DNA of 64,000 nucleotides from Marinomonas sp. MED121. GTDB taxonomy: Bacteria > Pseudomonadota > Gammaproteobacteria > Pseudomonadales > Marinomonadaceae. A program made the translations under genes and the position numbers. This document shows positions 47,414-64,000 of this stretch, piece by piece; the stretch's first letter is position 1; each line of letters starts with the position of its first letter. Under the pieces are notes generated by a model. It did no database searches and was not told the origin of the DNA. It saw only the letters and a list, made by a program, of their open reading frames with translations. The DNA lies in assembly GCF_000153025.1 (NCBI RefSeq), contig NZ_CH672429.1, forward strand, positions 1,418,226 to 1,482,225, written 5' to 3'.

Positions 47414-48085
47414 TCACCCCTGCCCTATCGCTTTCGCAAGCTTCTGCTCCATTTTACGATAGGCGAGAGATTCCATTAGGTGTCGACGCTCTACCAGATC
47501 AGCTTGGCTTAAATCAGAGAGAGTAAGAGCCACTTTTAGCACTCTATGATAGGCCCTTGCGGATAAACCCAGCTTGTCTAAAGCCCCTTGCATAAAAGCT
47601 TTATCACTTTCATTTAAAGCACAAATTGCTTCTAATTCACGGCCATTTAGTTGAGCATTTAAGCAGCCTTGGCGTGCTCTTTGTCTTGTAACAGCCTGCT
47701 CGACCCGTTCTCGAATGGAAGCGCTGCTTTCCCCCGTTTCACCAGCATTTACCAAGACATTGGAAGGCAAAGGTGGCACTTCTACATGTAGATCGATCCT
47801 ATCTAAGAATGGCGCTGAGAGTTTACGTAAATAACCTTGGCTGGCCATTGAGCCATAATAATCATCCCCTTGATAAGCTTCATTGCTCGCATTCATAGCA
47901 GCGACCAATTGAAAACGTGCGGGATAACAGACTTGTCCGCGAGCTCGAGATAAATGTATCTCACCATTTTCTAAAGGCTCTCTTAATACCTCTAAGACTT
48001 TACGGTCGAACTCAGGCAATTCATCCAGAAAAAGCACGCCACAATGGGCTAAAGAGATTTCACCTGGCTTAGGGACAGAGCCACC
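47414..48085 (-). pseudogene. comM: comM (YifB, Mg-chelatase-like helicase), C-terminal part left by transposon insertion
   Basis: About 223 codons of the ComM C-terminus: PKPGEISLAHCGVLFLDELP (Walker B), LLREPLENG-type sensor region, AMNASN, FLDRIDLHVEVP (Arg finger) and the Mg_chelatase C-terminal domain. ComM is about 500 residues; the N-terminal half with Walker A is cut off at 48085/48086, where the transposon begins. The ATG at 48097 that opens the present frame is inside the transposon end and not the native start. ComM is a branch-migration helicase for natural transformation, so that step is probably lost. Confidence 0.93.
48081..48085. repeat. Presumed 5-bp target-site duplication (left copy)
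   Basis: CCACC, the last comM bases before the TGT of the transposon end. Tn7-like elements duplicate 5 bp; the second copy should lie beyond the right edge. Confidence 0.55.
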
Positions 48086-48139
48086 TGTAAGAAACATAGT
48101 TAAGTGATAATATAAACTAAATTCTATAGGTATTTAATA
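48086..48139 (+). other. tns-proximal transposon end (Tn7 R-like)
   Basis: The 54 bases between the comM junction and the tnsA start begin TGT, as Tn7-family ends do. As in Tn7, tnsA reads inward from this end. Repeated TnsB-binding sites are not obvious by eye and may extend into tnsA. Confidence 0.6.
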
Positions 48140-48796
48140 ATGAGTAAGCCTTTTCATTCATCAGAAGCTAGAAAGATAGGGATAACGAATAGAAGTGTTT
48201 CCGGTGTTGTCCCAGATATTGGCTCTTATGAATCAACGCTTGAACGTGACTTTATGGAAAGACTCCGTTTTGAGCCTAATTTTAAAAAAATCACTCCACA
48301 GCCTATTACTATCCATTATGAAAACCACAGTCAAAAGCCAAGATCTTATACACCAGATGGCCTACTTTTTTTCAAAGAAGACTGCCATATAAGACCTATT
48401 TTATATGAAATAAAATATAGAGAAGACTTTAAAAAGTCGTGGAGAGAGCTTCTTCCTAAATTCAGAGCTGCAAAAAAATTTGCAATATCTCGCGGATGGT
48501 CTTTCAAAGTATTTACAGAAACAGATGTTAGAACACCATACCTAGATAATGCTAAGTTCTTGTGGCCATACAAGCACACAGTTATCGAAAAGGAGATGGA
48601 AACACATATCCTTTCATTATTGAGAGATTTACAGGAAGCTGATCCAGACTTGCTACTAACAGCGCTATGCAGCTCTCCTTATAACAGAGCAAAAATGATT
48701 CCGATCATTTGGACCCTCATTGCGAACCAAAGAATTGATTGTGACCTAGATCAACCACTCACTATGAGCAATAGAATTTGGGTTAAGGAGATATGA
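48140..48796 (+). CDS. tnsA: Transposon endonuclease subunit TnsA
   Basis: Cuts the 5' ends of the element so that transposition is cut-and-paste. 218 residues with a restriction-endonuclease-like core: E35 in ESTLERDF, D73 in SYTPDG and E90-x-K92 in LYEIKYREDF, the usual E-D-ExK arrangement, followed by a small C-terminal winged-helix part. Its stop overlaps the tnsB start (ATGA). Confidence 0.92.
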   Translation: MSKPFHSSEARKIGITNRSVSGVVPDIGSYESTLERDFMERLRFEPNFKKITPQPITIHYENHSQKPRSYTPDGLLFFKEDCHIRPILYEIKYREDFKKSWRELLPKFRAAKKFAISRGWSFKVFTETDVRTPYLDNAKFLWPYKHTVIEKEMETHILSLLRDLQEADPDLLLTALCSSPYNRAKMIPIIWTLIANQRIDCDLDQPLTMSNRIWVKEI

Positions 48797-50682
48797 TGAA
48801 AACTATTCAACCAGGTCAATTAATCTATTGGAAAGGAAGTGCTGCAATAGTCCTTGAGTTCAAAGGTTTTCAAGAGCTGATTGTACGTTCTGTTGAATCA
48901 GGGAAAACCGATATTGTTCATCTAAGAGAGATATCTTTACGCTTACCGTCCGACATAAATAAGCCTAGAAGCGCTCATTTAGTCGCAGAAGATAAAGAAT
49001 GGAATAAAGCACTAGAACGGTTTGAAATAATTAAGCCTCTTCTATCTATTCACCATAGAAGTGCAGAACAAGTTCAGCAGGTTGCTAAGAAACACAGTAA
49101 GGGAGTTGCAACAATATACCGTTGGATTAAGCAATTTGAGGAAACTGGTCTGGTTTCTTCTTTGCTTCGTCAAAAAAGAACAGATAGCGGAGAAACCAAG
49201 CTAGATAAGGAAGTTGAAGAATTAATAGGAACATTGATACAAGAGGAATACCTTCAAGAAGAAAGGAAATCTATCACAAAAGTGTTCAATTTAATTAAAG
49301 CTGAATGTAAGAATCTTGACCTTCCTGTTCCTCATCAAAATACGGTATATGCTCGAGTTCAAAAACTTGAAGATAAAGAGGTTTTAAAAAAACGATTAGG
49401 GGCAAAGATATCGAAGCAAAAGCACACGCCTACTCCTGGTAAGTTTCCAGGTGCAGATTACCCTAACGCCGTTGTGCAAATTGACCACACTCCAGTAGAT
49501 TTAATTATCGTAGACGAACTCCATAGGTTACCTATTGGTAGACCCTATTTAACCATTTCAATCGATGTCGCTACTAAGATGATTAGTGGATTTAAAATGA
49601 CCCTTGATCCCCCAGGGTCATCTTCTGCTGGCTTATGTATAGCTAATGCAATACTGCCTAAAGAAAACTGGCTTGCTAAACGAGATATTGAAGTTGAATG
49701 GCCTATTTATGGGAAAATGCAAAAAATACACGTAGATAACGCAAAAGAATTTCATGGGAATATGCTAAAACGCGCCTGCCAACAACATGGAATAATCTTA
49801 GAGTTTAGGCCTAAAGGTCAGCCAAACTATGGACCTCATGTCGAGAGAGCGTTTCGTACATTTATGCAAGAGACACATACTCTCCCTGGAACAACATTTT
49901 CTAATGTAAAAGAAAAATTAAATTACAACTCTGAAGGTAAAGCGGTCATGACACTTTCAGAACTAGAGCTTTGGTTTACCATATTTCTTGTGTACTGCTA
50001 CCACCATAGACCACATAGAGGAATCAATAAAATTCCACCTATCAAGCTTTATATGGAGTGCATTTTTGGAGATAAAGATAAGCCTGGCATTGGTTTACCA
50101 GCACCGATAGAAGATGAAGAGACATTACGACTAGATTTTACACCGTACATTGAAAGAACAATTCAACGACAAGGTGTCGAAATTGATTATGTGCATTACT
50201 ACTCAGATGCACTAAGGAAGTGGATTGGAACTGCCGATGATGAGAATCCAACAAAGTCGAAAAAATTCATTTTCGCTAGAGATCCTAGAGATATTAGCAC
50301 CATTTATTTCTTTGACCCAGATACAAGTAGATATATTCCAATTCCATATCTGAATACCTCTCGGCCCACTATCAGTTTATGGGAACTAAAGGCTGTAAAA
50401 AAACGACTCATTGAAGAGAATGATGCTTACGTTATTGATGAAGAAGTTATCTTCAGAGGCATCAAAAAAATGAGAGAAATCGAGGCTCAAGCCATTGAAA
50501 AAACACGTTTATCAAAACAACAACGAGCGACAGAAAAACGAAAACGAAGAATGGCTGAAAGACGTAAAAACTGGGAAGTAGAGCATGAAACCACCTCTCA
50601 CAAAGCTGAAGTATTGCCGAATGAGACTGCAGATGAACTTCTTGACGATATAGAGCCTTTCAATGATGTCGAACTTTATTAA
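48793..50682 (+). CDS. tnsB: Transposase TnsB (DDE integrase fold)
   Basis: 629-residue transposase that binds the ends and joins the 3' ends to target. N-terminal HTH domains (about 75-130, HSKGVATIYRWIKQFEETGL), then the DDE catalytic core with D231 (QIDHTPVDL), D315 (IHVDNAKEF) and E351 (YGPHVERAF), i.e. 35 residues between the second Asp and Glu. A Mu-type C-terminal barrel and a basic, charged tail (RATEKRKRRMAERRKNW) that may contact TnsC follow. Coupled to tnsA by 4-base overlap. Confidence 0.95.
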   Translation: MMKTIQPGQLIYWKGSAAIVLEFKGFQELIVRSVESGKTDIVHLREISLRLPSDINKPRSAHLVAEDKEWNKALERFEIIKPLLSIHHRSAEQVQQVAKKHSKGVATIYRWIKQFEETGLVSSLLRQKRTDSGETKLDKEVEELIGTLIQEEYLQEERKSITKVFNLIKAECKNLDLPVPHQNTVYARVQKLEDKEVLKKRLGAKISKQKHTPTPGKFPGADYPNAVVQIDHTPVDLIIVDELHRLPIGRPYLTISIDVATKMISGFKMTLDPPGSSSAGLCIANAILPKENWLAKRDIEVEWPIYGKMQKIHVDNAKEFHGNMLKRACQQHGIILEFRPKGQPNYGPHVERAFRTFMQETHTLPGTTFSNVKEKLNYNSEGKAVMTLSELELWFTIFLVYCYHHRPHRGINKIPPIKLYMECIFGDKDKPGIGLPAPIEDEETLRLDFTPYIERTIQRQGVEIDYVHYYSDALRKWIGTADDENPTKSKKFIFARDPRDISTIYFFDPDTSRYIPIPYLNTSRPTISLWELKAVKKRLIEENDAYVIDEEVIFRGIKKMREIEAQAIEKTRLSKQQRATEKRKRRMAERRKNWEVEHETTSHKAEVLPNETADELLDDIEPFNDVELY

Positions 50683-50694
50683 TAGGAGTAAACA

Positions 50695-51588
50695 ATGAAG
50701 GAATTTCCGCATTTACATCCTCGTTGTGCTGAGAAAATGAGCCTGTCTACTGAAGAGCGGTTAACAGAAATTTCTTCTCCAAGGTGGATTGGTTACCCCA
50801 AGGCGCATCAAATATTACAAAAATTTGAAGACCTACTCCGTCACCCTAGAGTCGCTAGGATGCCAAATTTAATGCTTGTGGGTAGAACAAATAATGGTAA
50901 AACAGATTTAGTCCAAAGGTTTTGCCAGTCTCACTTACCGGACCCTAATGCTGAAGGTGGAAGAATCATCGCACCTGTCATGTATATTCAGGCTCCGCCA
51001 TCCCCTAATGAAGCAGACTTGTATGCAACTATTTTATCTTCTATATACGAACGGGTTCCTTCAGCCTCTACTTCTGCAAAAAGAACAAGAACAATCCAAG
51101 TGCTCAAAGATATTGGAGTAAAAGTACTTTGTATTGATGAATTACATAATTCTTTAGCTGGATCGACACTCAAAAGGCAACACTTTCTAAACGCTATTAA
51201 AAACTTAGGAAACGAATTAAGAATATCTTTTATAGCATGCGGAACTGAGGATATATTAAGAGCAATAAGTATTGACCCTCAAATACAAAATCGCTTCCAG
51301 CCAATTCTTTTACCAAAATGGAAGTTTGATCAAGATTATAGGCAATTATTAAGAACATTCGAGGCAGTACTGCCTTTAAAAGAGCCTTCGAATTTACACT
51401 CAGGATTACTTGGTAGAAAAATTTATGCGACATCAGAAGGAAGTATTGGTGAACTTTCTTTACTTTTAAATCAAGCTGCCTCGTTTGCTTTAAATTCTGG
51501 AGAGGAAAAAATCACTACTGACATCATATCAAGCTGTGGTTATACACCACCAAGCGACCGATCACGAGAAGCCAGCCGGAATATTTAG
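50695..51588 (+). CDS. tnsC: AAA+ transposition regulator TnsC (TniB-size)
   Basis: ATPase that relays target choice from TniQ/TnsE to TnsAB. 297 residues with Walker A GRTNNGKT (63-70), Walker B VLCIDELHN (D148-E149) and sensor FIACGTEDI. Far shorter than Tn7 TnsC (about 555) and of TniB type, as in many Tn7-like elements. Starts 12 bases after tnsB with a TAGGAG ribosome site. Confidence 0.93.
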   Translation: MKEFPHLHPRCAEKMSLSTEERLTEISSPRWIGYPKAHQILQKFEDLLRHPRVARMPNLMLVGRTNNGKTDLVQRFCQSHLPDPNAEGGRIIAPVMYIQAPPSPNEADLYATILSSIYERVPSASTSAKRTRTIQVLKDIGVKVLCIDELHNSLAGSTLKRQHFLNAIKNLGNELRISFIACGTEDILRAISIDPQIQNRFQPILLPKWKFDQDYRQLLRTFEAVLPLKEPSNLHSGLLGRKIYATSEGSIGELSLLLNQAASFALNSGEEKITTDIISSCGYTPPSDRSREASRNI

Positions 51589-51590
51589 CT

Positions 51591-52739
51591 ATGCTTTTAC
51601 CTATGCATCCTAAACCATTTGAAAACGAACTGTTGTCATCTTGGGTCACTCGCATAGCATTAGAAAATGGTCTTTATACCCACGCACTTTATAAAAGTTG
51701 TCTTGGATTAGATTCTTCCATTTTCATTAGGGATATCGACAAATTTTTTGTGCCAAACTTAGTTGATAGTTTAGAACAAAGTACAGGGCTTACTTCTGAC
51801 AAAATTAAAAAGTTAATGCTAACAGGCTTCGAAGGCCGCATTACTGAGAAAATAATTATTAATAGCGCTTCACGGTGGATATTGCCTTTAGGTATTTACC
51901 ATAGGACTAGAAAAAATAAAGGTGTCGTTTACTGCCCACAATGCTTCGCTGAAACCCCAGTTAAATACTATAAGCGCATTTGGAGACTGTCTTTTGTAGT
52001 GATGTGCGAGAAACACCTTTGCTTACTAAGAGACTGTTGTCCTCATTGTGAAAGACCAATTGATTATCAACGACTTGGAATTGGAAAAACACAGTTCGAA
52101 ACTCCCTCCAATGACCTTGGGTTATGTGGTTCATGTACGCTCCCTCTATGGACTAACTGTAGCTCAGAAATACCTTCTGAATATATAGAGCTAACCGGTG
52201 CATATTTATCATTTTTGAAAGCCTTCACTTTAAACCAACCTTGTATCCCCCTTCTAAAACAACCAATGGAATTGCAAGAATTTAATGGTTTATGGGTTTT
52301 AATCAGCTCAATACTAAGAAAACATTACTTTAATAGCGGTGTTAGAGCTAACATCCTGAAGTTTACTGGAATAGACATTCATTCAAGCACAGGCACACAC
52401 GTAAGCTTTGATCAACGCCCGATAGAGGAAAGGTTTAAAATTCTATTAGCTATCTTTTGGATTTTAGACAAGTGGCCCGATAGGCTTCTTCAACTAGCCG
52501 GTGGTACCATCTATTCAAAATCAGCCTTTAAAGACCTTTCAGAATCTCCTCCATTTTGGCTAAACACTGTTATCCATAGGCATCTTGATAAAACGATATA
52601 CTCAGCAACTGACGATGAACTATTGAATATCGAAAACTATTTGATGACACATTCAATTGTTCCTACAACAAAGACTATCGCTCTTTTTGCTAATATGAAT
52701 AAAGGGACCTGTCGAGATAAATTAAAAACTCTCAGGTAA
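51591..52739 (+). CDS. tniQ: Target-site selector TniQ/TnsD-like, presumed comM-specific
   Basis: 382 residues. The TniQ start MHPKPFENELLSSWVTRIAL is followed by two zinc-finger CxxC pairs (YCPQCF, CCPHCE and a later GLCGSC), then a C-terminal HTH-rich region (LMTHSIVPTTKTIALFANM). TnsD-type proteins read a fixed chromosomal site; since the element sits in comM, this protein presumably recognises comM (inference). It starts 2 bases after the tnsC stop. Confidence 0.9.
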   Translation: MLLPMHPKPFENELLSSWVTRIALENGLYTHALYKSCLGLDSSIFIRDIDKFFVPNLVDSLEQSTGLTSDKIKKLMLTGFEGRITEKIIINSASRWILPLGIYHRTRKNKGVVYCPQCFAETPVKYYKRIWRLSFVVMCEKHLCLLRDCCPHCERPIDYQRLGIGKTQFETPSNDLGLCGSCTLPLWTNCSSEIPSEYIELTGAYLSFLKAFTLNQPCIPLLKQPMELQEFNGLWVLISSILRKHYFNSGVRANILKFTGIDIHSSTGTHVSFDQRPIEERFKILLAIFWILDKWPDRLLQLAGGTIYSKSAFKDLSESPPFWLNTVIHRHLDKTIYSATDDELLNIENYLMTHSIVPTTKTIALFANMNKGTCRDKLKTLR

Positions 52740-52855: not shown

Positions 52856-54676
52856 TTGTTTGAATCAAAAAAACTGAAAAGCAAGGAAGGTATTTGGCGC
52901 GTTAACGGCATAAGCTCTATAAAGCCAAGTGAAAAATATATCCCGAGTGTTTTTATCTCTTTGTCTAAGGTAAAAAGTGAAGGTGTACACTCCCCACTTA
53001 AGCTGGGACAACTTTCTGAAAAACACATATGGATTGTGGAACCGCTTAATAGAATATCTGAATTTTTGATTGGTTCTTGCTGGGAAGATGGTAAAAGAAT
53101 TAACAGGCTTTCACCTTTTGAAACAAAGTTTACTATCGATACCTCAAAGATTAAAATCATCAAACCCAACGAAAAAATATCTATTGATAGCACTTTTTTC
53201 CCTTCAATACTTCCTTCAATGGCCATTGATCTTAGTTCCAAAAAAGTTAGGCGAATTAAAAGCGAATCATTTTATGCAATTGTGCCAGTCCTCGATGATC
53301 CACTAACAAAGTTTTTAGTGCTTCCATGCAGTGAGCTATATCGTTTCTATATCGGTGTTAGTGATCGTTTTATTAATAAAGTATTAACAAACAATACCCA
53401 AAACTATTTTTCTTGGGAAGATCCATACATAAGAGTAAAAAAACCATTAAACAGGCTGGAGCAGTTTATTGCTTATAGAGGGAATTGGGATGAACAAGGG
53501 AAAGATTGGCTATTGATGCCATCAAGATATATACAAACTATTGCAACGGCGAATAATTCAGTGAAAGATGAAAAAATGCTACAGCCATTTGCTCTAAAAG
53601 CCACTTTCCCATTTAAAGGTATAACTACCTTAACAATCGCTGGTAAGCGCTTTAAATATGAGTCCGAAGATAAAGTCATATGGGCTATTTTTGCTGCGAA
53701 CATAATCCATTGCGATAAAAAAGTTGATTTTGAGACAAAAATTCTTGCTGATCCATATTCTAAAAACCCTCAAGCATGGACACTAGAAGCTGGAGACGCA
53801 AATGATTTAATTAAGAGCCCGTTTGACGATGAATATAATTTATCAGAAACAGATGAGCCTTCCAATACTCTTCCTGACAATGTTGTGATACTAAACCCCA
53901 GTAATCGTTTTTCAGCAATGAATGACATGGATTTTAAGCACTATTTAACAAATGAAACAAATGATCCTTTATATGTAGGTGATTCTACTGCAGATTCTAA
54001 TTTCTATTCATACGAAGATATGGTTTCTGATGGATCTGATGATCGTATACTTCGCAAAAGCGATTTCGAATCACACGTAAACCATGTCGATCGGAAACTA
54101 TCTGACTTCATAAAAGTAATATCTCATCTTAGAGCTAAAAATATCCATAGAAACTGGGAGGTTGTAACTAGATCAGCTGCAAATTCAATATTAGAACAAG
54201 ATGGTGAAATTGTTACTACTTTCCTTGAGAACAGGAATAGAAGATATTCTTGGCATTTAGTTGATGATATTAATGAAGGAGTTAAACGGCTAAGGCAAAT
54301 AGTTTGGGTAGAAATTATTGTAAACCAAAGCTCTTTTATATACCTTGCAGAAATGGAACTAAAAGGATCAGAAACTGGTCGAAGCACCTTCTGTATTTAT
54401 ACAAATGACCTTAAATATATGCCTGAAGGAGATTTCGAGACCTTTTTAGAAATAACAGCAAGGCAAAATCGTTGGCCAATGCCTGACCATAAATGGAGGA
54501 GCTCATCAGCTAAAATTACAGCAGATAAATATTTTGAAAATTATAAGCATAGACCCATTATTCACCCTGACTTTCTATCAACTTCAGACTCACTATCAGA
54601 GACAGAATTATCATTGTGGGCTAATAATTTAACCAGTAACCTTAGGTCAATATTGGCTCGGAACGTTACTAGTTAA
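52856..54676 (+). CDS. tnsE: TnsE-like protein (fifth transposition gene)
   Basis: 606 residues, TTG start with GAGGAAG 5 bases upstream. It occupies the fifth slot after TniQ, as tnsE does in Tn7 and tniE in Tn6022-type islands. Its C-terminus (NRWPMPDHKW, HRPIIHPDF, then ELSLWANNL) recalls the end of Tn7 TnsE (LNWPNS, HRGVNHPK, WAERVV) by eye. TnsE targets lagging-strand replication, notably on conjugating plasmids. A middle region (about 330-410) is acidic and low-complexity. The link to TnsE is an inference that a profile search should test. Confidence 0.6.
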   Translation: MFESKKLKSKEGIWRVNGISSIKPSEKYIPSVFISLSKVKSEGVHSPLKLGQLSEKHIWIVEPLNRISEFLIGSCWEDGKRINRLSPFETKFTIDTSKIKIIKPNEKISIDSTFFPSILPSMAIDLSSKKVRRIKSESFYAIVPVLDDPLTKFLVLPCSELYRFYIGVSDRFINKVLTNNTQNYFSWEDPYIRVKKPLNRLEQFIAYRGNWDEQGKDWLLMPSRYIQTIATANNSVKDEKMLQPFALKATFPFKGITTLTIAGKRFKYESEDKVIWAIFAANIIHCDKKVDFETKILADPYSKNPQAWTLEAGDANDLIKSPFDDEYNLSETDEPSNTLPDNVVILNPSNRFSAMNDMDFKHYLTNETNDPLYVGDSTADSNFYSYEDMVSDGSDDRILRKSDFESHVNHVDRKLSDFIKVISHLRAKNIHRNWEVVTRSAANSILEQDGEIVTTFLENRNRRYSWHLVDDINEGVKRLRQIVWVEIIVNQSSFIYLAEMELKGSETGRSTFCIYTNDLKYMPEGDFETFLEITARQNRWPMPDHKWRSSSAKITADKYFENYKHRPIIHPDFLSTSDSLSETELSLWANNLTSNLRSILARNVTS

Positions 54677-54975: not shown

Positions 54976-55740
54976 CTATTCTCTAAGGGCTAAATGTTGA
55001 TGTATATTTGGAAATTCACTTTGGTCTGTTACTAAATATGTGTGCAAGGTATAGAGAAACAATGCCTTCCTGCATGATACAGCCAGAACACCGTTGCTCA
55101 TTTGGTAGTCAATTTCAATGATACGCCTTTGCTCAAGACTCAAACTTGGATTTGGAATCAAAAAGAAGGTTTTGTACTCATTCCAATCAAGGTCATTATC
55201 GATATGACTAGTAGTATCATTCTCACTCACTAATAAACTATTTCCCTGCATTCTTGGTAAGTTGAAATCCTTAAACAACCCAGACCCTTTTTCCCACCCT
55301 CTGACATGCCAACGATAACCAGAGCTAATCAAGCTATGCGGATAGACTATTCGCTTAGTTGGTTCAGGCGTATTTAATGATGAATAATCGAACTCAACAG
55401 CAAATCCATGTTTAATGGCTTCTTGGATAGAGCGAAACTTATCCATATCCACACCGGAATTTACCGTTTCCAGATGATGGATAAAGCCTGGACGACCAAC
55501 AATCTGTAGATAATCGACAAAACGATATGTACTTTTAATCCGGTAGTCTTCACTTGGCACATATCCTCGACTACGAGGATGATAATGGATATGCCTTGGC
55601 AGCTCCTTTGAGATGAGAGCAAAAATTTTCGTGGCCTTAGATTCTTTTATGCCAAACCGTTCTATTAGATCTTTGCGTGTAACACGACCTTCAAAGAAAG
55701 CCTTATGCAAGGTAAATTCAATGTAATCCTTGTTATTCAT
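54976..55740 (-). CDS. WYL-domain transcription regulator of the Wadjet operon
   Basis: 254 residues: N-terminal winged helix (about 1-60, VTRKDLIERFGIKESKATKIF), WYL domain (about 115-195, VEFDYSSLNTPEP, PHSLISSGYRWHVRGW) and a C-terminal WCX-type extension. It resembles BrxR/CapW-type defence regulators. Divergent from jetA across a 195-base region whose six phased repeats are the likely binding sites. A -10 TATAAT (55776-55771, minus strand) lies 31 bases before the ATG. Probably a repressor of both genes (inference). Confidence 0.88.
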   Translation of the reverse strand: MNNKDYIEFTLHKAFFEGRVTRKDLIERFGIKESKATKIFALISKELPRHIHYHPRSRGYVPSEDYRIKSTYRFVDYLQIVGRPGFIHHLETVNSGVDMDKFRSIQEAIKHGFAVEFDYSSLNTPEPTKRIVYPHSLISSGYRWHVRGWEKGSGLFKDFNLPRMQGNSLLVSENDTTSHIDNDLDWNEYKTFFLIPNPSLSLEQRRIIEIDYQMSNGVLAVSCRKALFLYTLHTYLVTDQSEFPNIHQHLALRE

Positions 55741-55794
55741 CTTGTTCTGCGCCCTTATTCATATACAGCTATTATAAAACATAAAAACCCATAA

Positions 55795-55896
55795 ACCTAT
55801 TGCCTTTCAATACCTATTGACTTTCAATACCTATTGATTTTCAATACCTATTGATTTTCAATACCTATTGATTTTAAATACCTATTGATTTTCAAT
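55795..55896. promoter_or_regulatory. Operator array: six 17-bp direct repeats with internal palindromes
   Basis: Units of acctattgattttcaat start at 55795, 55812, 55829, 55846, 55863 and 55880, exactly in phase. Each contains ATTGA-ttt-TCAAT, a perfect dyad in units 2, 3, 4 and 6. Units 1 and 5 keep most of it. The array reaches from the -35 region of the WYL gene to within 4 bases of the jetA -10 (TATAAT, 55900-55905). Confidence 0.9.
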
Positions 55897-55935
55897 AGAT
55901 ATAATGCGTACATCATTTTATGTATAAGGAAAATA

Positions 55936-57384
55936 ATGAGCCATTTCTTCAACCTGTATCCTGACAATATATTTTTCCCCTTGGCTGGAGAAAATAGAAC
56001 AGCTTATTTAGATCTCATAGTTAGTATGCATTCAAAATTTTTCAGTGAATCAGCAGAGTTTATTGACACCAGCATTCCAATACCACGAATCAAGGCATTT
56101 ATTGAAGAAGCACTTCATGAAGAAAACTGGAACACTGAAGGTGAAGGTGAAGGTGGTTGCATCAAATCCCGTGCGATTTATGTATATAACCGATTACTTG
56201 AAACAGGTTGGCTAAATATTCGCAAAGACGGCATTAAACAGGATATTTATATGTCATCGAAAGTTTCTATGTTAGTAGACTTCATAGAAAACATTCAACT
56301 TTATTCATCCGGAGAAATTGGTGGAGGAGTGTTATCAATCCGTAACAATCTAGAATCAATCATCTCACCAAGAAAACGAACCTCTGCAACCGATATTTCT
56401 CAAATGCTAGACCAAGTGGTTCAAGACACTCAGTCATTAAGCAAGACAATGAAGAATTTGGCTTTGCACTTGACAGATATCTCTCAGGACTTTCGTCGCT
56501 TTACCAAACTGGATGAAAAAATGACTTTGTTCTTTGAAGAGTTTATTAAGAATTCCTCTTTCTCCGATTACAACTTGATTAAAGGTCAGCATCATCCATT
56601 TCGTTTTAAAAGTGAGATATTGGACATGCTGTACTCGATTGAGTATGAAGTAGATACAACCGAGCAAGTAGTAAATTCCATCCAAGAACACAATAGATTA
56701 AAAACAGCTCAAGACCTTCCCTATGAAAAGGCTCTAGAAAGCTTAAAAAACAAGGTTCGTTTGATTCGTAACATCTTTGAGAATACCGAATATTTAATCG
56801 AGAAAATCGATGCCAGTCATGCTCGACTAGGGCGACAGGTGAATGAGTCCATTAAATATCACTCGCGAACCCCATCAAGTGCCATCAATGATTTTGAGTC
56901 CTTATTAAAAACTATTAAAGAGACCGGAGTAAAAGGCACAATCAGTAACCCATTACCTGTTTATCCATTTTTTTCACTGGAACTTGTGGCAAGAGTCCCG
57001 AAACAACGCAAACAGATTACCCAGCGCAAAAACACAATAAAGACACTAATCCCTGAAGAAGTAATAAGACAGAAGGAAGAAAAACGTCTTGCACTTGAAA
57101 GGCGTACCATTAATCAAGAGAAGCTTACAAAATGGCTAGATGCGTTATTCAACCAGCATGGAGAGCTCGGCCAAATTAACTCAATCAACATTCCGGTCTC
57201 CACCATTGAAGATTTTGTGGCATTTACCGTCTGTCGGCGACTGGGCATAGAAGATGAAAAACTTCACCGTAATTATTCAGACACGCTCACACAATACAAT
57301 TTTATCCTGGCAGGTGATGATCTTATTGAGCATGAGCACACCTTCTGCCAGCCATTTAATATCGTAAAAATGTTTGGGAGTTAA
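55936..57384 (+). CDS. jetA: Wadjet protein JetA (condensin-like kleisin subunit)
   Basis: Kleisin-type subunit of the Wadjet SMC complex that extrudes and senses circular DNA. 482 residues from ATG 55936 (AAGGA 5 bases upstream; a longer frame from TTG 55885 would begin inside the operator repeats and lies around the -10, so it is rejected). Start MSHFFNLYPDNIFFPLAGEN; central coiled-coil region (about 145-280, DQVVQDTQSLSKTMKNLAL); C-terminal winged helix. Followed 3 bases later by jetB. The Wadjet type is not decided by eye. Confidence 0.88.
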   Translation: MSHFFNLYPDNIFFPLAGENRTAYLDLIVSMHSKFFSESAEFIDTSIPIPRIKAFIEEALHEENWNTEGEGEGGCIKSRAIYVYNRLLETGWLNIRKDGIKQDIYMSSKVSMLVDFIENIQLYSSGEIGGGVLSIRNNLESIISPRKRTSATDISQMLDQVVQDTQSLSKTMKNLALHLTDISQDFRRFTKLDEKMTLFFEEFIKNSSFSDYNLIKGQHHPFRFKSEILDMLYSIEYEVDTTEQVVNSIQEHNRLKTAQDLPYEKALESLKNKVRLIRNIFENTEYLIEKIDASHARLGRQVNESIKYHSRTPSSAINDFESLLKTIKETGVKGTISNPLPVYPFFSLELVARVPKQRKQITQRKNTIKTLIPEEVIRQKEEKRLALERRTINQEKLTKWLDALFNQHGELGQINSINIPVSTIEDFVAFTVCRRLGIEDEKLHRNYSDTLTQYNFILAGDDLIEHEHTFCQPFNIVKMFGS

Positions 57385-57387
57385 GCC

Positions 57388-58047
57388 ATGTTCAATGAGG
57401 TAAGGAATCTAATTAATAATACAGCGGTTGAAGAGTCACAAATTATCGAGACGTTCAACTACCTACAAAATCACCAGTTTGTCTTCAGAAAACGTTCAAA
57501 AGACCGTAAGCACTATGCATTCATCAGCGAGCATTTCGACCTCTTTAGAAGTGGTTTTGAACTGTTTGGAAAATTTCTTATCCAGAATAATGATTATGGT
57601 TATATTGGAATCAACAGTACTTCGTCGGATGACTTTAATCGTCTAACGATGATTGACACAGCTATTCTGGTAACTTTAAGGGTTATATACCATCAAGAGA
57701 AAGAATCCCGTTCTAATGAAGATGGCTCAATCAGTATCTCGGGGAGTCACTTAGTGACGCAGTATAAGCAATATACTGAACGTAATGACTTGGTTGATAG
57801 TAAGTCACGCTTTATGGAATATTTAAAGCTGTTTAAACAGAAGCGAATCCTTTCGCTTAGCAGTGAGGTTGATGAAGAAACCCTGCTTCCGATAATTACC
57901 ATTTTCCCGACAATCGAAGTCATAATGACTCCGGAGGTTGCACTAAGACTTAATCAGGAAATCGCTAATAGAGCAAACTCTGCTTCTTCAGATGATGATA
58001 CCAGTCAGATTAAAATATCTTCCTATACCATGGAGGAAGAAGTATGA
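57388..58047 (+). CDS. jetB: Wadjet protein JetB (kite-type subunit, DUF4194-like)
   Basis: 219 residues, mostly winged-helix, with RSKDRKHYAFISEHFDLFRSGFELFGK and a Ser/Asp-rich C-terminal tail (SASSDDDTSQ). In condensin-like Wadjet complexes JetB binds JetA and bridges the SMC-like JetC. It overlaps the jetC start by 4 bases (ATGA) and starts 3 bases after jetA, so the operon is tightly coupled. Confidence 0.88.
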   Translation: MFNEVRNLINNTAVEESQIIETFNYLQNHQFVFRKRSKDRKHYAFISEHFDLFRSGFELFGKFLIQNNDYGYIGINSTSSDDFNRLTMIDTAILVTLRVIYHQEKESRSNEDGSISISGSHLVTQYKQYTERNDLVDSKSRFMEYLKLFKQKRILSLSSEVDEETLLPIITIFPTIEVIMTPEVALRLNQEIANRANSASSDDDTSQIKISSYTMEEEV

Positions 58048-61000
58048 AATTAAAAAGTGTTATTCTTGTTAATTGGTACTTGTTCGACCCAATCACAGTT
58101 CCCATTCACGGCAATGTCGCCTTAATCGGTGAGAACGGATCGGGTAAATCCACCATTATTGATGCAATCCAGACTGTCCTGTTTGGTGGGAACCAGAAAT
58201 CTATCCACCTAAATGCAAGTGCCTCTGTTGCCAAAACCAATCGAAGCATCCGGACTTACTGCCTAGGTTATTACAAACCGGGCAACAAAGATGATGAATC
58301 CTCCTCTACTTATAGAAAGCGTGATGAGAGTATTACCTATCTGGGTTTAGTATTTGAGCACCCAAATAATGGCAGTCATGTTTCACTTTTTGTGGGGATT
58401 GAGGCTTATGAAGATGATCCTGCGCCAAACTTTAAAATTAGAGGGATATATCAAGGTAATCGTGCCTTAGAGGCCAAGGACTTTATTACTATACATGATG
58501 ATGGATCTTTTGAATCTCTAACAGCGATAAATTTAAAAAAATCTCTATCGCTACAAGGGATTACTCCCTACTATGCAGACAAGTCAAAAGACTTTATGGA
58601 GGCAATGGTTAAGCTCATTGGTCCAACTGCACACCATGACTGGATAGATCCCGAGATCTTGCGTGGCTCACTTTCCAAATCTATCTCATTGAAAAAAGAG
58701 ATCACCGAAGTATCGCAGTTTGTCGAGAGCTTCGTTCTGGAACCCCGCGATATCAAAGTTGATGATTTAATTCGAACCAAGAATCACTATCAAAACCTTA
58801 CTACTAAAATCAATGAATTAAGTCAACAAAAGGAGATATTGGATGAACTGAATGCCACTTTGAACCGTGCTATTACACAACGAAAAAAAATGCACTCACT
58901 TTCGTGGATTGCTTTGGAGAAACAGCTCGAAGGCATTCAAGAAGATCAATATGTTCGAAAACAAGGTTTAGCACAATATATTCAGAAACGATGGGACAAC
59001 CGTAAAGCCGAACGTCAACTGAAAAAGACTATTGCAACGTTACGTAATAAGCAGAGCGAACTGTCAATCCAGATTAGTAATGATGATGAGCAGCGACGCA
59101 GAGACAATCTTACTAAAGAAATCGAAAAAATTGTGGATAAAATTAATTCAATTCAAAGGGACATGCTTAGTGACATTGCACATTACCGACAGTTCTGTAA
59201 GCAAGATGTTTCGGTTTTGCATGAAGAGTCAATAAATCTTTTGACGTCAAAAATGCGTCCTATGCTTGAACAGACAGCTAACATGTCTTTTGATTTTGAA
59301 TCGTTCGACGATCTTTCTGAAGCCTTGATTGGACAGATTGATGCGATTGAGGATTTGATTGATCTCAAACAAAAGCCTTTGATAGCACGGGAAGTCCAAA
59401 TTGAAGAACAGGTTACAACGCTAACTGAAAACATTAATCGCGTTTCCTCCGGTAAGCGTCTTTTAACCCCTGAGACGGAATTCTTGATTCAATACTTAGT
59501 AGAACATGGTATTCAGGCAACCCCTGTATGTAATGTTGTAGAAATCTCAGATGCCACTTGGCAACCTGCAATCGAGGCATTTTTGGCGAATAACGTGGAA
59601 GCCTTGATTGTACCGGAAGACCAAGAAGTTGAAGCGATTCGCTTGTATCGAAGATTGAAGAACACCCACCAGATTTATAAGCGCGTCATTGTTAAAGCCT
59701 CCCTTTGCGTGAATTGGTACGATTCAATCGCTTTGGCTCCAAACTCTGCAGCCACTCTTTTAGAGTCAAACAACCAATATGCTTTGGGCTTTTTGTACAA
59801 ATTGCTAGGCAGACTTGAGTTGGTAGATTCAGACTCAGAACTTAGACGCTCGAGATTCGCCTTATCTAAAGATGGAATGGTTACAAATTCAGTCGGAATT
59901 TCTCGTCTTAAATTGATCTCTCATCTAAAAATGATGAAAGATCAGAGTCATAACCTTGAGACGTGGCGCAATAAGCGTCGTGATTTATCGACTGAAAAAG
60001 ACGACCAGATTACGCCAACTAGGTCAAAACTCAAAGACGTTTCTGATTCACTCGCGCATTTAAAAATGGTCCAGAGAGATACTGAGCGTCAATCATTCCA
60101 AGCACGAAACTTAGCGATCACACAACAAGAAAAGCTGAAAGAAAAGAATGAAGAAATCCTGAAAGGGATTGATTTAACTCATATTGACAGCCTGATTCAG
60201 GAGCGCGATAAAATTGAAAAGAAGCTTCTGCCTCTGCGAACAAAAGAGCTAGAAAAGCTTCTGGATGAAAAAGGGGGCATGAGAGCCCAGATTAAAGATA
60301 CAAAAACGTACCTTTTGGCTCTTAATAAAAAAGTTGAAGTAAAATATGAAGAACAGGGCAAAATTGAAGCCTCTGTCTATTTTGATGTTCAATATAATGA
60401 CGAACTTCAGATCAAGTCTGAGGATGAAGATGCAGATATAGTCAAGGGCAAGCATGAAAGTCTCAGTAAGCAGTTTTACAATGCATTGAACCGAAATGAG
60501 TTCACAATGAAAGATATTGCTGAAACGAATGAAAGTTTTAACCCTGAGGCGTACTTCCCACTAAATAATGAGACCTTGGAGCCTGTGACTCAATACGTTC
60601 ATGAGTGCATCACCAAGATTGTCGAGATGAATATCGTCAAATATAAAGAAGCAGCTGAAAGAGCCAGTAAAGAACTGAATGAATCCTTTAGAACCGATGT
60701 GACTAACCGATTAAGGGAAGTCTTTAAAATGCAGAATCGTCAGTTCAGAGATTTAAATAAGGCACTCTCACAAAGACTTTTTCATTCAGAACGTTATAAG
60801 TTCATAAAAAAACCAAAATCAGAATTTAGGGACCTGATTAATTATATTGAGAAGACTGACTTGACCACAAATACTGATGATTTGTTTGATTCCATGCCAC
60901 CGGAAGTAGAAGCGCAAATTGAATTACTTATTTCCAGTGATAAGGACGATACATTGAATATTCGGGATTACAGAAAATATTTTGTGTATGACGTTGAAGT

Positions 61001-61427
61001 AACATCGGATGTGACTCAAGAGCGTTATTACGTCAGCGACCAAATGGGAACAGGTTCTGGTGGTGAAAAGCAGTCGCCCTTCTATGTTGCCATTGCCTCA
61101 TCATTAGCGACCGCATGGGGAACATTGAGCAATCCAGGTAGAAGTGCTGGACTTGCTTTATTGGATGAAGCATTTGACAAGTTGGATGAAGAAAACCTCA
61201 AGAACGCGATGGATTTTATGGGCGATACTGGGTTACAGGTTATTGTGGCAACCCCAGCACAGCAAGAATACGTATTCAAACCAGCAGTCAACAGTGTGAT
61301 CTATGTGTCCAAGCACATCTTGTCTAAAGATAAGGCCACCGCCAGTCTAGATATTGAGATTTTAACGGAAAGAGGTTGGGAAATCTTCAATCCAGTACAA
61401 GCAATACCAAGCGAGGTTCTTGTATGA
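58044..61427 (+). CDS. jetC: Wadjet protein JetC (SMC-like ATPase)
   Basis: Motor subunit that extrudes DNA loops. 1127 residues with Walker A GENGSGKST (K35), ABC signature GTGSGGEKQ (from G1002) and Walker B LALLDEAFD (D1041, E1042). Between them lie two long coiled-coil arms (about 270-460 and 680-870) and a central hinge-like region with Rossmann-like segments (PEDQEVEAIRLYRRLK). All ATPase motifs are intact. jetD begins in its last codons (ATGA overlap). Confidence 0.93.
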   Translation: MKLKSVILVNWYLFDPITVPIHGNVALIGENGSGKSTIIDAIQTVLFGGNQKSIHLNASASVAKTNRSIRTYCLGYYKPGNKDDESSSTYRKRDESITYLGLVFEHPNNGSHVSLFVGIEAYEDDPAPNFKIRGIYQGNRALEAKDFITIHDDGSFESLTAINLKKSLSLQGITPYYADKSKDFMEAMVKLIGPTAHHDWIDPEILRGSLSKSISLKKEITEVSQFVESFVLEPRDIKVDDLIRTKNHYQNLTTKINELSQQKEILDELNATLNRAITQRKKMHSLSWIALEKQLEGIQEDQYVRKQGLAQYIQKRWDNRKAERQLKKTIATLRNKQSELSIQISNDDEQRRRDNLTKEIEKIVDKINSIQRDMLSDIAHYRQFCKQDVSVLHEESINLLTSKMRPMLEQTANMSFDFESFDDLSEALIGQIDAIEDLIDLKQKPLIAREVQIEEQVTTLTENINRVSSGKRLLTPETEFLIQYLVEHGIQATPVCNVVEISDATWQPAIEAFLANNVEALIVPEDQEVEAIRLYRRLKNTHQIYKRVIVKASLCVNWYDSIALAPNSAATLLESNNQYALGFLYKLLGRLELVDSDSELRRSRFALSKDGMVTNSVGISRLKLISHLKMMKDQSHNLETWRNKRRDLSTEKDDQITPTRSKLKDVSDSLAHLKMVQRDTERQSFQARNLAITQQEKLKEKNEEILKGIDLTHIDSLIQERDKIEKKLLPLRTKELEKLLDEKGGMRAQIKDTKTYLLALNKKVEVKYEEQGKIEASVYFDVQYNDELQIKSEDEDADIVKGKHESLSKQFYNALNRNEFTMKDIAETNESFNPEAYFPLNNETLEPVTQYVHECITKIVEMNIVKYKEAAERASKELNESFRTDVTNRLREVFKMQNRQFRDLNKALSQRLFHSERYKFIKKPKSEFRDLINYIEKTDLTTNTDDLFDSMPPEVEAQIELLISSDKDDTLNIRDYRKYFVYDVEVTSDVTQERYYVSDQMGTGSGGEKQSPFYVAIASSLATAWGTLSNPGRSAGLALLDEAFDKLDEENLKNAMDFMGDTGLQVIVATPAQQEYVFKPAVNSVIYVSKHILSKDKATASLDIEILTERGWEIFNPVQAIPSEVLV

Positions 61428-62632
61428 ATGACCCTGCAAAAAGCGAACAGATTTTAATCGAAATCTTGACTAAACTGTTACTCAAGCAAGAGCAATTACT
61501 GGGATCTGGTTCAAATAAGCAGGCAGACATAGGTACGCGTGAATCAGTGTTCAAGCCTTATGCTAAAAGTCAGCCACTAGGCATTGTGAAGTACATAAAC
61601 ATTCTGATCCAAAAGTATGAAAAAGAAGGTATTCTAAAAGCCTCTTGGCATACTGAAAATATATCTTTGAAGCGTATCTATTTGCAAGATTACGAAAGGC
61701 TTTGTGAGTTAATTAAGCACACCCCTATACTGAAAAAACTGAGTATCGCCTTACAATATTTGGACTACAAGGTGCTAGATATTCCGCTTTATTCCATGTT
61801 GAGAGATGCTATTAGGGCGAATTGGTTGGAACATAAATCTTTTCATAAATGCACGGTTGATCAATATGAGACTCTAGCTAAGGGTTTTCAGGGCGCACAT
61901 ATAGCATTGTCGCTGTATCAGAAAAAAGAGGCCATCGACTACCGTCATTTCTCCATTAAGGCGTTTAAAGATTCCAAGAAGCTCAGTTCTTATAAAGCCC
62001 TTATTGCTAACCTTCTCAAATCACAATATTCAGAACTCGAAGGTTTTGGTATTGATGAAGTCTTTCGATTCTTTGGAATTACTCCCATAGAGCAACCTAT
62101 CCTTCTTTCAGGAAGTCTTAACTTTACGCAACATGGAAGTATTCTCGATGCCAGTTTTCCTCCGGCAGTAGGATTGTTCCCAACTGAAGAGCTGCTAGTA
62201 TCAACTCAAATAGCTATAACTAGTGTTATAACCATAGAAAATCAGGCTTCCTTTATGCGCTACGTTAAAGAGGAAAAACAACCAACAGAAATAGTACTTT
62301 ATACTTCTGGCATTCCGACCCCTAAATTTATTGAACTTTTCCAAAAGGTTTCTAATACGTTAGAATCTGAAACTAACTTCCTTCACTGGGGAGATATCGA
62401 TCTTGGTGGCTTTAGGATCTGGAACATACTAAATAAATCGATAGAAAGAGAGGTTAAACCGCACCGGATGTCACCAGATGATTATCCAAGCTCTCAGCAC
62501 TTAAAAGATTTAAACGAGTCTGAAAAAACACAGCTTGAAACACTTTCCAATCCTAGCATAGCGAAATTAATTCAAAGAATAACTTCTGTCGGAAAAAAAT
62601 ATGAGCAAGAGATGTGGAAAGGAAAACAGTAA
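61424..62632 (+). CDS. jetD: Wadjet nuclease JetD (Toprim)
   Basis: Topoisomerase-like endonuclease that cuts plasmid DNA trapped by JetABC. 402 residues from ATG 61424, overlapping the jetC stop; the longer frame from 61376 would lie inside jetC and is rejected. Toprim motifs: E272 in ITIENQASF and D324/D326 in LHWGDIDLGGF. The N-terminal part (about 1-200) is the arm/CAP-like domain that contacts DNA. With complete JetABC upstream, the system looks functional. Confidence 0.9.
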   Translation: MNDPAKSEQILIEILTKLLLKQEQLLGSGSNKQADIGTRESVFKPYAKSQPLGIVKYINILIQKYEKEGILKASWHTENISLKRIYLQDYERLCELIKHTPILKKLSIALQYLDYKVLDIPLYSMLRDAIRANWLEHKSFHKCTVDQYETLAKGFQGAHIALSLYQKKEAIDYRHFSIKAFKDSKKLSSYKALIANLLKSQYSELEGFGIDEVFRFFGITPIEQPILLSGSLNFTQHGSILDASFPPAVGLFPTEELLVSTQIAITSVITIENQASFMRYVKEEKQPTEIVLYTSGIPTPKFIELFQKVSNTLESETNFLHWGDIDLGGFRIWNILNKSIEREVKPHRMSPDDYPSSQHLKDLNESEKTQLETLSNPSIAKLIQRITSVGKKYEQEMWKGKQ

Positions 62633-62996: not shown

Positions 62997-64000
62997 TTAA
63001 GCTGTTTGCTCTGCAGCAATAGAAAGCCCTTGCTTAACTTCTTCGTAGATTGGTATATTTTCACCAGGTGTATCAAGAGTGACAACCAAAGCATAAGGGA
63101 TTTCTATATTTGAAATCCCTGCTCTCCCCATACAGTGAACTTGAATAGTAAGTTGATCTCCTTCAGTAAAAACTGACGCTTTATCACCTTTACGAACATC
63201 ATGATAAAGTGTGCCATTCTTTAAGTAATGATGGTAATAATCACTACTCTGAGCATTGATATCTTCTTTTGATGATGTAGCCCATAATTGAGCCCCCCTG
63301 TAATCTTGATGACCATGATTCACAGGAGAGAACCATGCAATAGTCACAATGAGACGTCGCTCAGACGTTTGAGACGCTAAACTTTTGGGCAAAGGCATCT
63401 TATATTCATGCCCAGCATCATTCTTAATTACTCCTGTATAGATCAGTGTTGCTTGATTATTCTGGCAGGCATGAATTCTTTGTTCATTAACATTACCAAA
63501 ACCAATAAATTGATTCAGTTCAGATTTAAATATATTACTATTAGATTTGTCTTTCAGATATTTAGAAATAACATCTGTAAGTGACCTAGAGTATTCAGCA
63601 CCATGAGCGAGAAGTGCTTTCAGTATTAATGCATCTGGAGCATGAGATAAAGCTTCAGAATCGCCTAAATCTTTTATCCCTTTAAGTGTCTCATATAAAA
63701 AAGCAATACGACGTGTTGCCAATGCAGCTGCATTACTTGTTCCGGCAGTATATCCGTATGAGTTAACAGAGCCCAAAACTGAAGAAGGTAGCGCTGTTTT
63801 TTGCCCTGGCCCAAAGCGCGTACTTACAACAGGTTCGAGCACAATATCCTGTTCAGCTAAATAGCTCTTATTACGATAAGTAAGCCTGCCTCCAGGCATC
63901 ATCAATTCAGGCTTAATTGAGTTTTTCTTACCTAATGATATAGGGTTAATAGGGCTAAATATTTTCTTTGTTTCCAATATATCAATCTGATTAGGAGGGA
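62997..64000 (-). CDS. Subtilisin-like (S8 family) protease, C-terminal part, truncated by window edge
   Basis: Reading leftward, the frame is open through the right edge (codons PPNQIDILETKKIF before the nominal TTG at 63977), so this is the C-terminal part of a longer protein. The catalytic Ser is in the S8 context YTAGTSNAAALATRR. The region after it (about residues 100-320) is a beta-rich C-terminal domain (RRLIVTIAWFSPVNHGH). The His and Asp of the triad would be upstream. Paired S8 protease/AAA ATPase genes (IetAS) are known defence systems, and an ATPase just beyond 64000 would fit. Confidence 0.75.
   Translation of the reverse strand, partial: PPNQIDILETKKIFSPINPISLGKKNSIKPELMMPGGRLTYRNKSYLAEQDIVLEPVVSTRFGPGQKTALPSSVLGSVNSYGYTAGTSNAAALATRRIAFLYETLKGIKDLGDSEALSHAPDALILKALLAHGAEYSRSLTDVISKYLKDKSNSNIFKSELNQFIGFGNVNEQRIHACQNNQATLIYTGVIKNDAGHEYKMPLPKSLASQTSERRLIVTIAWFSPVNHGHQDYRGAQLWATSSKEDINAQSSDYYHHYLKNGTLYHDVRKGDKASVFTEGDQLTIQVHCMGRAGISNIEIPYALVVTLDTPGENIPIYEEVKQGLSIAAEQTA

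What the first reader, a model, noticed from the sequence alone, without database searches (positions are those of the whole stretch)
54976..62632. Complete Wadjet system as cargo of a comM-inserted Tn7-like transposon
jetA, jetB, jetC and jetD are all intact, with all catalytic motifs (JetC Walker A, signature, Walker B; JetD Toprim E272, D324, D326) and ATGA or 3-base junctions. Being cargo of a transposon that targets a conserved gene explains how such anti-plasmid operons spread.
Basis: partly seen in the sequence, partly recalled or inferred. Interest (0 to 1): 0.8.

Follow-up and report, generated by a model that had tools for sequence, protein, structure and literature searches.

The report
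Anti-plasmid Wadjet operon inside a transposon
A marine bacterium carries a complete operon of the type that destroys invading plasmids, riding with other defence genes inside a jumping element that has landed in the comM gene; both halves are known kinds of thing, but no sign was found here of the protein known to steer such elements to comM.

Summary
Window 55936-62632 encodes JetA, JetB, JetC and JetD, all best matched by PADLOC type I Wadjet models, with intact frames, tight junctions and the expected motifs. The operon lies inside a Tn7-like transposon of 33,418 bp whose far end is outside the window: inverted ends (12 of 14 bases), 5-bp duplication CCACC, and rejoined flanks restore comM. 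JetD_C matches in 1 of 48 genus genomes. Marinomonas pontica has the same 6.6-kb backbone 4 bp away in comM, with another duplication and other cargo (SspBCD, frames broken), so cargo is exchanged and the insertions are separate. Wadjet in Tn7-like elements and comM-targeting Tn7-like elements are already published. Additions: no TnsF, the known comM selector, is detectable; the gene after tniQ weakly resembles TnsE; a CapW/BrxR-like WYL gene faces jetA across six 17-bp palindromic repeats with no other near-exact match in the genome; IetAS is further cargo. Ordinary in kind and well delimited; what steers the element to comM is the open part.

The parts
48081..48085 (.). 5-bp target-site duplication CCACC, left copy (right copy at C9:1499729-1499733, outside the window)
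48086..48099 (.). left terminal inverted repeat TGTAAGAAACATAG (right end TGTAAGGAACATTG, outside the window)
47414..48085 (-). 3' part of comM, cut by the transposon; the 5' part lies 33.4 kb away at C9:1499.7-1500.6 kb
48140..48796 (+). tnsA (218 aa)
   Evidence: Pfam PF08722 and PF08721
48793..50682 (+). tnsB transposase (629 aa)
   Evidence: PADLOC TnsB, Pfam Mu-transpos_C
50695..51588 (+). tnsC (297 aa)
   Evidence: Pfam TniB 215 bits
51591..52739 (+). short tniQ (382 aa)
   Evidence: Pfam TniQ 83.6 bits
52856..54676 (+). 606-aa protein that weakly resembles TnsE; no Pfam match; not TnsF
   Evidence: hhalign against five TnsE: two rows E 0.0039 (probability 8.7%), with one plasmid piece added E 1.4e-6 (90.4%); two-row controls 0.083 to 0.92, single-sequence tnsB control 0.051; against TnsF E 0.6
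54976..55740 (-). WYL-domain regulator of the CapW/BrxR family (254 aa), divergent from jetA
   Evidence: phmmer to 7tb5 1.6e-25, CapW 7tb6 4.5e-25, BrxR 7t8k 1.3e-24
55795..55897 (.). array of about six 17-bp tandem repeats, each an imperfect palindrome CTATTGA-TTT-TCAATA; proposed operator array
   Evidence: TRF 6.1 copies, 95% matches, score 178; all five genome matches at 0-1 mismatch lie here
55936..57384 (+). jetA (482 aa from ATG 55936; open frame from TTG 55885)
   Evidence: JetA1 models; start
57388..58047 (+). jetB (219 aa)
   Evidence: JetB1 models
58044..61427 (+). jetC, SMC-like ATPase (1127 aa)
   Evidence: JetC1 models; motifs
61424..62632 (+). jetD, Toprim nuclease (402 aa)
   Evidence: JetD1 models; PF09983; E272, D324, D326
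62997..63998 (-). 3' part of ietS (S8 protease, 868 aa); it continues outside the window, next to ietA
   Evidence: PADLOC IetS 979 bits, IetA 468 bits

Best explanation
A 33,418-bp Tn7-like transposon (TnsA, TnsB, TnsC, short TniQ, a TnsE-like protein) is inserted in comM of a Marinomonas genome and carries, among other cargo, a complete type I Wadjet operon. By homology to studied Wadjet systems (recalled; abstracts in the listing), JetABC is a loop-extruding SMC complex that recognises circular plasmid DNA and JetD cuts it, so that the host resists plasmids. A divergent WYL repressor of the CapW/BrxR family probably holds jetABCD down by binding the six palindromic 17-bp repeats. Shown: gene content, type, intactness, transposon ends, target duplication, other cargo on the same backbone and separate insertion of that backbone. 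Inferred: anti-plasmid activity, repression, present mobility.
For: Type I profiles for all four genes; motifs and junctions; inverted ends, duplication, comM restored as one frame; comM frame of 506-544 aa in 45 of 48 genus genomes, short in G000, G011 and G019; JetD_C in 1 of 48 genus genomes; same backbone (81% DNA identity over 6.57 kb, then only the terminal 25 bp) with other cargo in M. pontica, 4 bp away in comM and with duplication CTCCC instead of CCACC; WYL relatives CapW/BrxR and repeat array.
Against: The jet operon was found in one element only. No match covering three quarters or more of JetC exceeds about 28% identity in the class and plasmid searches (cut at E 1e-100), so function rests on family membership; shorter pieces reach 37%. 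Of solved structures only one JetC family (8dk1, 9.1e-6) matched JetC and none matched JetD at E up to 0.1. The sigma-70 scan found no promoter match between the WYL gene and jetA.
Confidence: 0.9

Rival explanations
1. The operon is a housekeeping MukBEF/MksBEF condensin, not a defence system.
For: All 34 of 34 same-genus relatives and G000 itself carry another JetC-like protein at 26-27% identity (in G017 it is in two pieces, 27% and 38%).
Against: That core copy is a separate locus: in G000, on contig C6, its two upstream neighbours look like mksF and mksE by reading, and no nuclease frame follows. The three genus copies compared are 77-91% identical to each other and 25-26% to the transposon JetC. 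JetD_C is not found in the other 47 of 48 genus genomes. The transposon operon has JetD and type I profiles.
Confidence: 0.03
2. The jet operon is not transposon cargo but an island that happens to lie next to tns genes.
For: The jet operon itself was seen in one element only, and the nearest JetC of the class (G169) lies in a stretch without tns genes by reading.
Against: Inverted ends and identical 5-bp duplications bracket the whole 33.4 kb, and joining the flanks restores comM.
Confidence: 0.02
3. The element belongs to the Tn6022 family and reaches comM through a TnsF too divergent to be seen, or supplied by another element.
For: Same target gene, short TniQ, TnsB about 40% identical to TnsB of Acinetobacter elements that carry TnsF.
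Against: A profile of five TnsF proteins scores at best 2.5 bits in the frames of the G000 element and lists none of the G011 element at E up to 10, while left-out TnsF of P. putida, Halomonas and Methylobacter elements score 452, 555 and 559 bits. One Acinetobacter TnsF finds nothing in all of G000 at E up to 1 (no positive control of its own), while it finds those three at 281-339 bits.
Confidence: 0.15

Closest known systems
Wadjet type I (JetABCD)
   Same: Four genes in order A-B-C-D, type I profiles, SMC ATPase and Toprim motifs.
   Different: JetC is at most about 28% identical to any copy covering three quarters or more of it in the class and plasmid searches; it is transposon cargo next to a WYL regulator.
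Wadjet as cargo of Tn7-like transposons (Benler et al. 2021, PMC8649781; passages read)
   Same: Their defence table gives 34 for Wadjet/JetD, in Pro and Act hosts (I did not see the column head).
   Different: The text held has no whole word comM; I could not check whether any of the 34 lies in comM.
Tn6022/AbaR-type Tn7-like transposons in comM (Faure et al. 2023, PMC10293859; passages and sections 11 and 14 read)
   Same: comM target near its Walker B motif, TnsABC, short TniQ.
   Different: No TnsF detectable; a TnsE-like gene directly after tniQ on the same strand, where the paper reports tnsE on the opposite strand.
BrxR/CapW WYL regulators (Picton et al. 2022, PMC9122601; passages read)
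   Same: Homologous regulator next to a defence operon; the paper lists Wadjet among systems co-localised with BrxR homologues.
   Different: BrxR sites in the passages are pairs of 10-11 bp inverted repeats with a 5-bp spacer; here six tandem 17-bp units with arms of 6-7 bp.
Mks-type condensin of the genus core
   Same: JetA/B/C-like set.
   Different: No nuclease found, present in every genus genome, about 26% identical.

Membership tests
Wadjet type I | JetA, JetB, JetC, JetD in one operon, type I profiles | tested here: met
   junctions
Wadjet type I | JetC ATPase motifs and JetD Toprim acidic residues | tested here: met
   that these residues are catalytic is recalled
Wadjet type I | cleaves circular plasmid DNA and lowers transformation | not testable with these tools
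   needs bench work
Tn7-like transposon | TnsA, TnsB, TnsC and TniQ | tested here: met
Tn7-like transposon | TGT...ACA inverted ends and 5-bp target duplication | tested here: met
   also G011
Tn6022 family | insertion in comM | tested here: met
Tn6022 family | TnsF target selector in operon with short TniQ | tested here: not met
Tn6022 family | tnsE on the opposite strand | tested here: inconclusive
   the only TnsE candidate is on the strand of tniQ, but its TnsE identity is itself weak
TnsE | sequence relation to known TnsE | tested here: inconclusive
   hhalign E 0.0039, probability 8.7% (two rows) and E 1.4e-6, 90.4% (one plasmid piece added); two-row controls 0.083 to 0.92, no three-row control; tnsB single-sequence control 0.051; no Pfam match at E up to 10; AlphaFold model failed, pLDDT 27
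MksBEF/MukBEF without nuclease | no JetD/MksG | tested here: not met
   JetD present
CapW/BrxR regulator | sequence relation | tested here: met
CapW/BrxR regulator | binds inverted repeats and represses | not testable with these tools
   palindromic array present; binding untested

The most novel reading that the evidence does not exclude
This element and its M. pontica sister define a Tn7-like lineage that hits comM without TnsF, so that a short TniQ alone or with the TnsE-like protein (or an unrecognised gene) reads the comM site: a second, independent way to the same target. Its Wadjet cargo is held by a WYL repressor on a six-site operator array, and the element bars rivals twice, by breaking comM (transformation) and by cutting plasmids.
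Probability: 0.45. Interest if true: 0.55.

Novelty: new member of a known kind. Interest (0 to 1): 0.4.

Why it matters
It gives a fully delimited case of an anti-plasmid operon on a chromosomal transposon, with a sister copy that shows other cargo and a separate insertion. The absence of a detectable TnsF makes a clean test: which protein of this small set finds comM. The regulator with its repeat array makes the control of a Wadjet operon directly testable.

Tried and rejected
AlphaFold of the 606-aa protein with a two-row alignment gave pLDDT 27 and was not used further. It has no Pfam match at E up to 10, no PHROGs match at E up to 0.01, two PDB matches only at E 1.2 and 1.6, and no relative confirmed in viral contigs. 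TnsE_C (PF18623) does not ring in G000. The G019 TnsE-like protein (610 aa) found no plasmid relative from its C-terminal 322 aa and alone does not align significantly to TnsE (E 0.19). I first thought that the G000 and M. pontica insertions were at the same base; one search shows them 4 bp apart. I considered G019 as a third copy: it is another family (TnsB 41%; ends TGACA, duplication CTAAG, opposite orientation), also without a detectable TnsF (best 3.6 bits). Searches for near relatives of JetC in 369 genomes of the class (E up to 1e-100: G000 and G169 only) and in 72,556 plasmid records (23 records) gave no closer jet operon.
Full report
What is there. The window is C9:1418226-1482225 of a 5.15-Mb genome. 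The genus is Marinomonas by inference: the same-genus relative G011 has a contig of the same length (60,463 bases) as NZ_JAODTL010000009.1, Marinomonas pontica LMG 22531, with the same transposon genes in it. Frames from 54976 to 62632 are a WYL gene on the minus strand and then jetA, jetB, jetC and jetD on the plus strand. PADLOC gives type I for all four: JetA1 201.9 bits, JetB1 97.9, JetC1 541.3, JetD1 164.6, against 45.5 for JetD2 and 32.2 for JetD3. Pfam gives JetA, DUF4194, SbcC_Walker_B and JetD_C above their cut-offs. NCBIfam gave nothing above a cut-off. The junctions are 3 bp, ATGA and ATGA; JetC has GENGSGKST, SGGE and LLDEAF; JetD has E272, D324 and D326 counted from ATG 61424, and the three residues align with the same residues in the JetD of genome G169 of the same class. 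That they are catalytic is recalled from the Toprim family. Weiss et al. 2023 (PMC10123090; abstract and outline seen) report that the homologous MksG is a Toprim nuclease that degrades plasmid DNA.

The transposon. tnsA, tnsB, tnsC and a short tniQ of 382 aa follow one another from 48140 to 52739. The left end is window 48086, the right end C9:1499728, outside the window; the ends are TGTAAGAAACATAG and TGTAAGGAACATTG, the flanking duplications both CCACC, the length 33,418 bp, and joining the flanks gives comM as one frame. Of 48 genus genomes searched with the ComM N-terminal domain PF13541, 45 have an open frame of 506-544 aa and three a short one: G000 (327), G019 (294) and G011 (290); in each of the three an element with duplicated target bases splits the gene. 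With TnsC as query, 8 of the 48 have some match at E up to 0.001, but outside G000 only G011 (92%) and G019 (44%) are near.

Other cargo on the same backbone. In M. pontica (G011) the element is 21,740 bp long. It shares 6,581 aligned bases with ours at 81% identity (tnsA to the end of the 606-aa gene); beyond that blastn at E up to 1e-3 finds only the terminal 25 bp. Its cargo has SspB, SspC and SspD matches, with SspC and SspD each in two frames, and G011 has no JetD_C match. Its duplication is CTCCC and lies 4 bp upstream of ours on the comM coding strand. Two different duplications at slightly different points mean two separate insertions, in the same orientation. Near the right end both elements keep a distant pair: a 132/146-aa protein (34% identity, 3e-32) and a Phd-like antitoxin (35% over 37 residues, 1e-8).

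Further cargo of our element: IetA and IetS, a defence pair in PADLOC (468 and 979 bits); an ankyrin protein; three similar frames in tandem; a 703-aa frame that I read as VgrG from recall (not searched), a DUF4123 protein and an 829-aa LysM protein. The genome has two T6SS sheath genes elsewhere (PF05591).

Is it a condensin instead? All 34 of 34 same-genus relatives, and G000 on contig C6, have another JetC-like protein, 26-27% identical; in G017 it is in two pieces. In G000 the two frames before it look like mksF and mksE, and the next frame after it is a response-regulator-like protein (names by reading, no profile run). Three genus copies are 77-91% identical to each other and 25-26% to the transposon JetC. 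JetD_C matches only in G000, 1 of 48, while the control genome Corynebacterium glutamicum rings. The core locus is thus an Mks-type set without a nuclease; the transposon operon is Wadjet.

Where else? In 369 genomes of the class only G169 has a JetC match at E up to 1e-100 besides G000 (27%); its jet operon lies in a 17-kb stretch in which I saw no tns genes (by reading). In 72,556 plasmid records 23 have a match; those covering 76% or more of JetC are at most 27.8% identical, shorter ones reach 36.9%. So I cannot say where this operon came from.

Target selection. Faure et al. 2023 (PMC10293859; passages, sections 11 and 14 read) showed that Tn6022 reaches comM through TnsF, encoded after a short TniQ, and that TnsF needs a 10-bp stretch of the comM Walker B region. 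Our duplication ends 43 bp before the VLFLDE codons (counted on the letters and the frame). Yet no TnsF is seen: a profile of five TnsF proteins scores at best 2.5 bits in the frames (40 aa or more) of the G000 element and lists none of the G011 element at E up to 10, while left-out TnsF of three other genera score 452, 555 and 559 bits. A single Acinetobacter TnsF finds nothing in the whole G000 genome at E up to 1, while it finds the TnsF of Halomonas, Methylobacter and P. putida elements at 281-339 bits. The gene after tniQ (606 aa) weakly resembles TnsE: against five TnsE proteins, hhalign with two rows gives E 0.0039 (probability 8.7%); with one unjoined plasmid piece added 1.4e-6 (90.4%) over 291 columns; five two-row controls give 0.083 to 0.92, and a single tnsB sequence gave 0.051. 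No three-row control was run. The paper calls TnsE the plasmid-target selector, so what reads comM here is open: TniQ itself, the TnsE-like protein or an unrecognised gene. A third comM element, in G019, is a different family in the opposite orientation (duplication CTAAG) and also shows no TnsF (best 3.6 bits).

Regulation. The WYL protein matches CapW and BrxR structures at 1e-25 to 1e-24. Between it and jetA lies an array of about six 17-bp repeats (55795-55897, TRF score 178). The core of the unit is an imperfect palindrome, CTATTGA-TTT-TCAATA. In the genome all five matches at 0-1 mismatch, and a sixth at 2, are in this array; the other 12 of 18 hits have 2 mismatches, against 10 hits of the reversed control pattern. 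Picton et al. 2022 (PMC9122601; passages read) describe BrxR as a repressor that binds paired inverted repeats and list Wadjet among systems near BrxR homologues. That the array is the operator is inference. A sigma-70 scan found no promoter match between the WYL gene and jetA.

What is known. Benler et al. 2021 (PMC8649781; passages read) give 34 for Wadjet/JetD in their table of defence systems of Tn7-like transposons, so Wadjet as Tn7-like cargo is in print; comM as a Tn7-like target is in print too. A search for papers with comM, Tn7-like and Wadjet gave four, listings seen, of which I read passages of Benler only (the word-start match also counts words such as 'common'); a wider search gave 39, of which 20 were listed. 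Marinomonas with Tn7 gave 12, six listed. I saw none that describes this combination, which is weak evidence, since only open papers are held. The finding is therefore a new, well-delimited member of a known kind; the comM targeting without a detectable TnsF is the part that could be a new variant.

Noticed in passing
window 55795-55897: About six 17-bp tandem palindromic repeats between the WYL gene and jetA; no other place in the genome matches the core at 0-1 mismatch.
   Followed up: partly
window 52856-54676: 606-aa TnsE-like protein; relatives found were M. pontica (75%) and, at 25%, two Pseudomonas plasmids, where the match spans three annotated genes; in the one fetched the frame is broken.
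   Followed up: partly
L007 523-5729 (C9, outside the window): VgrG-like (recalled, not searched), DUF4123 and LysM-829 genes as transposon cargo; the host has two T6SS sheath genes elsewhere. A paper search for Tn7-like with VgrG gave four papers, listings seen only.
   Followed up: no
L006 3223-6881: IetA/IetS defence pair as second defence cargo of the same element.
   Followed up: partly
L006 10953-14452: Three similar frames in tandem that look like lipoproteins of the formylglycine-generating-enzyme (SUMF1) kind (recalled; not searched).
   Followed up: no
L034 10191 to C23 about 176536 (G019): A different Tn7-like element of about 24.3 kb in comM, opposite orientation, ends TGACA, duplication CTAAG, no TnsF detectable.
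   Followed up: partly
L032 13064-17196: SspC and SspD of the M. pontica element are each split into two frames, so that system may be inactive or the assembly may hold errors.
   Followed up: no
G011 C9, near the right end of its element: A 297-aa protein 27% identical to the window's WYL regulator lies between the cargo and the right end in M. pontica.
   Followed up: no
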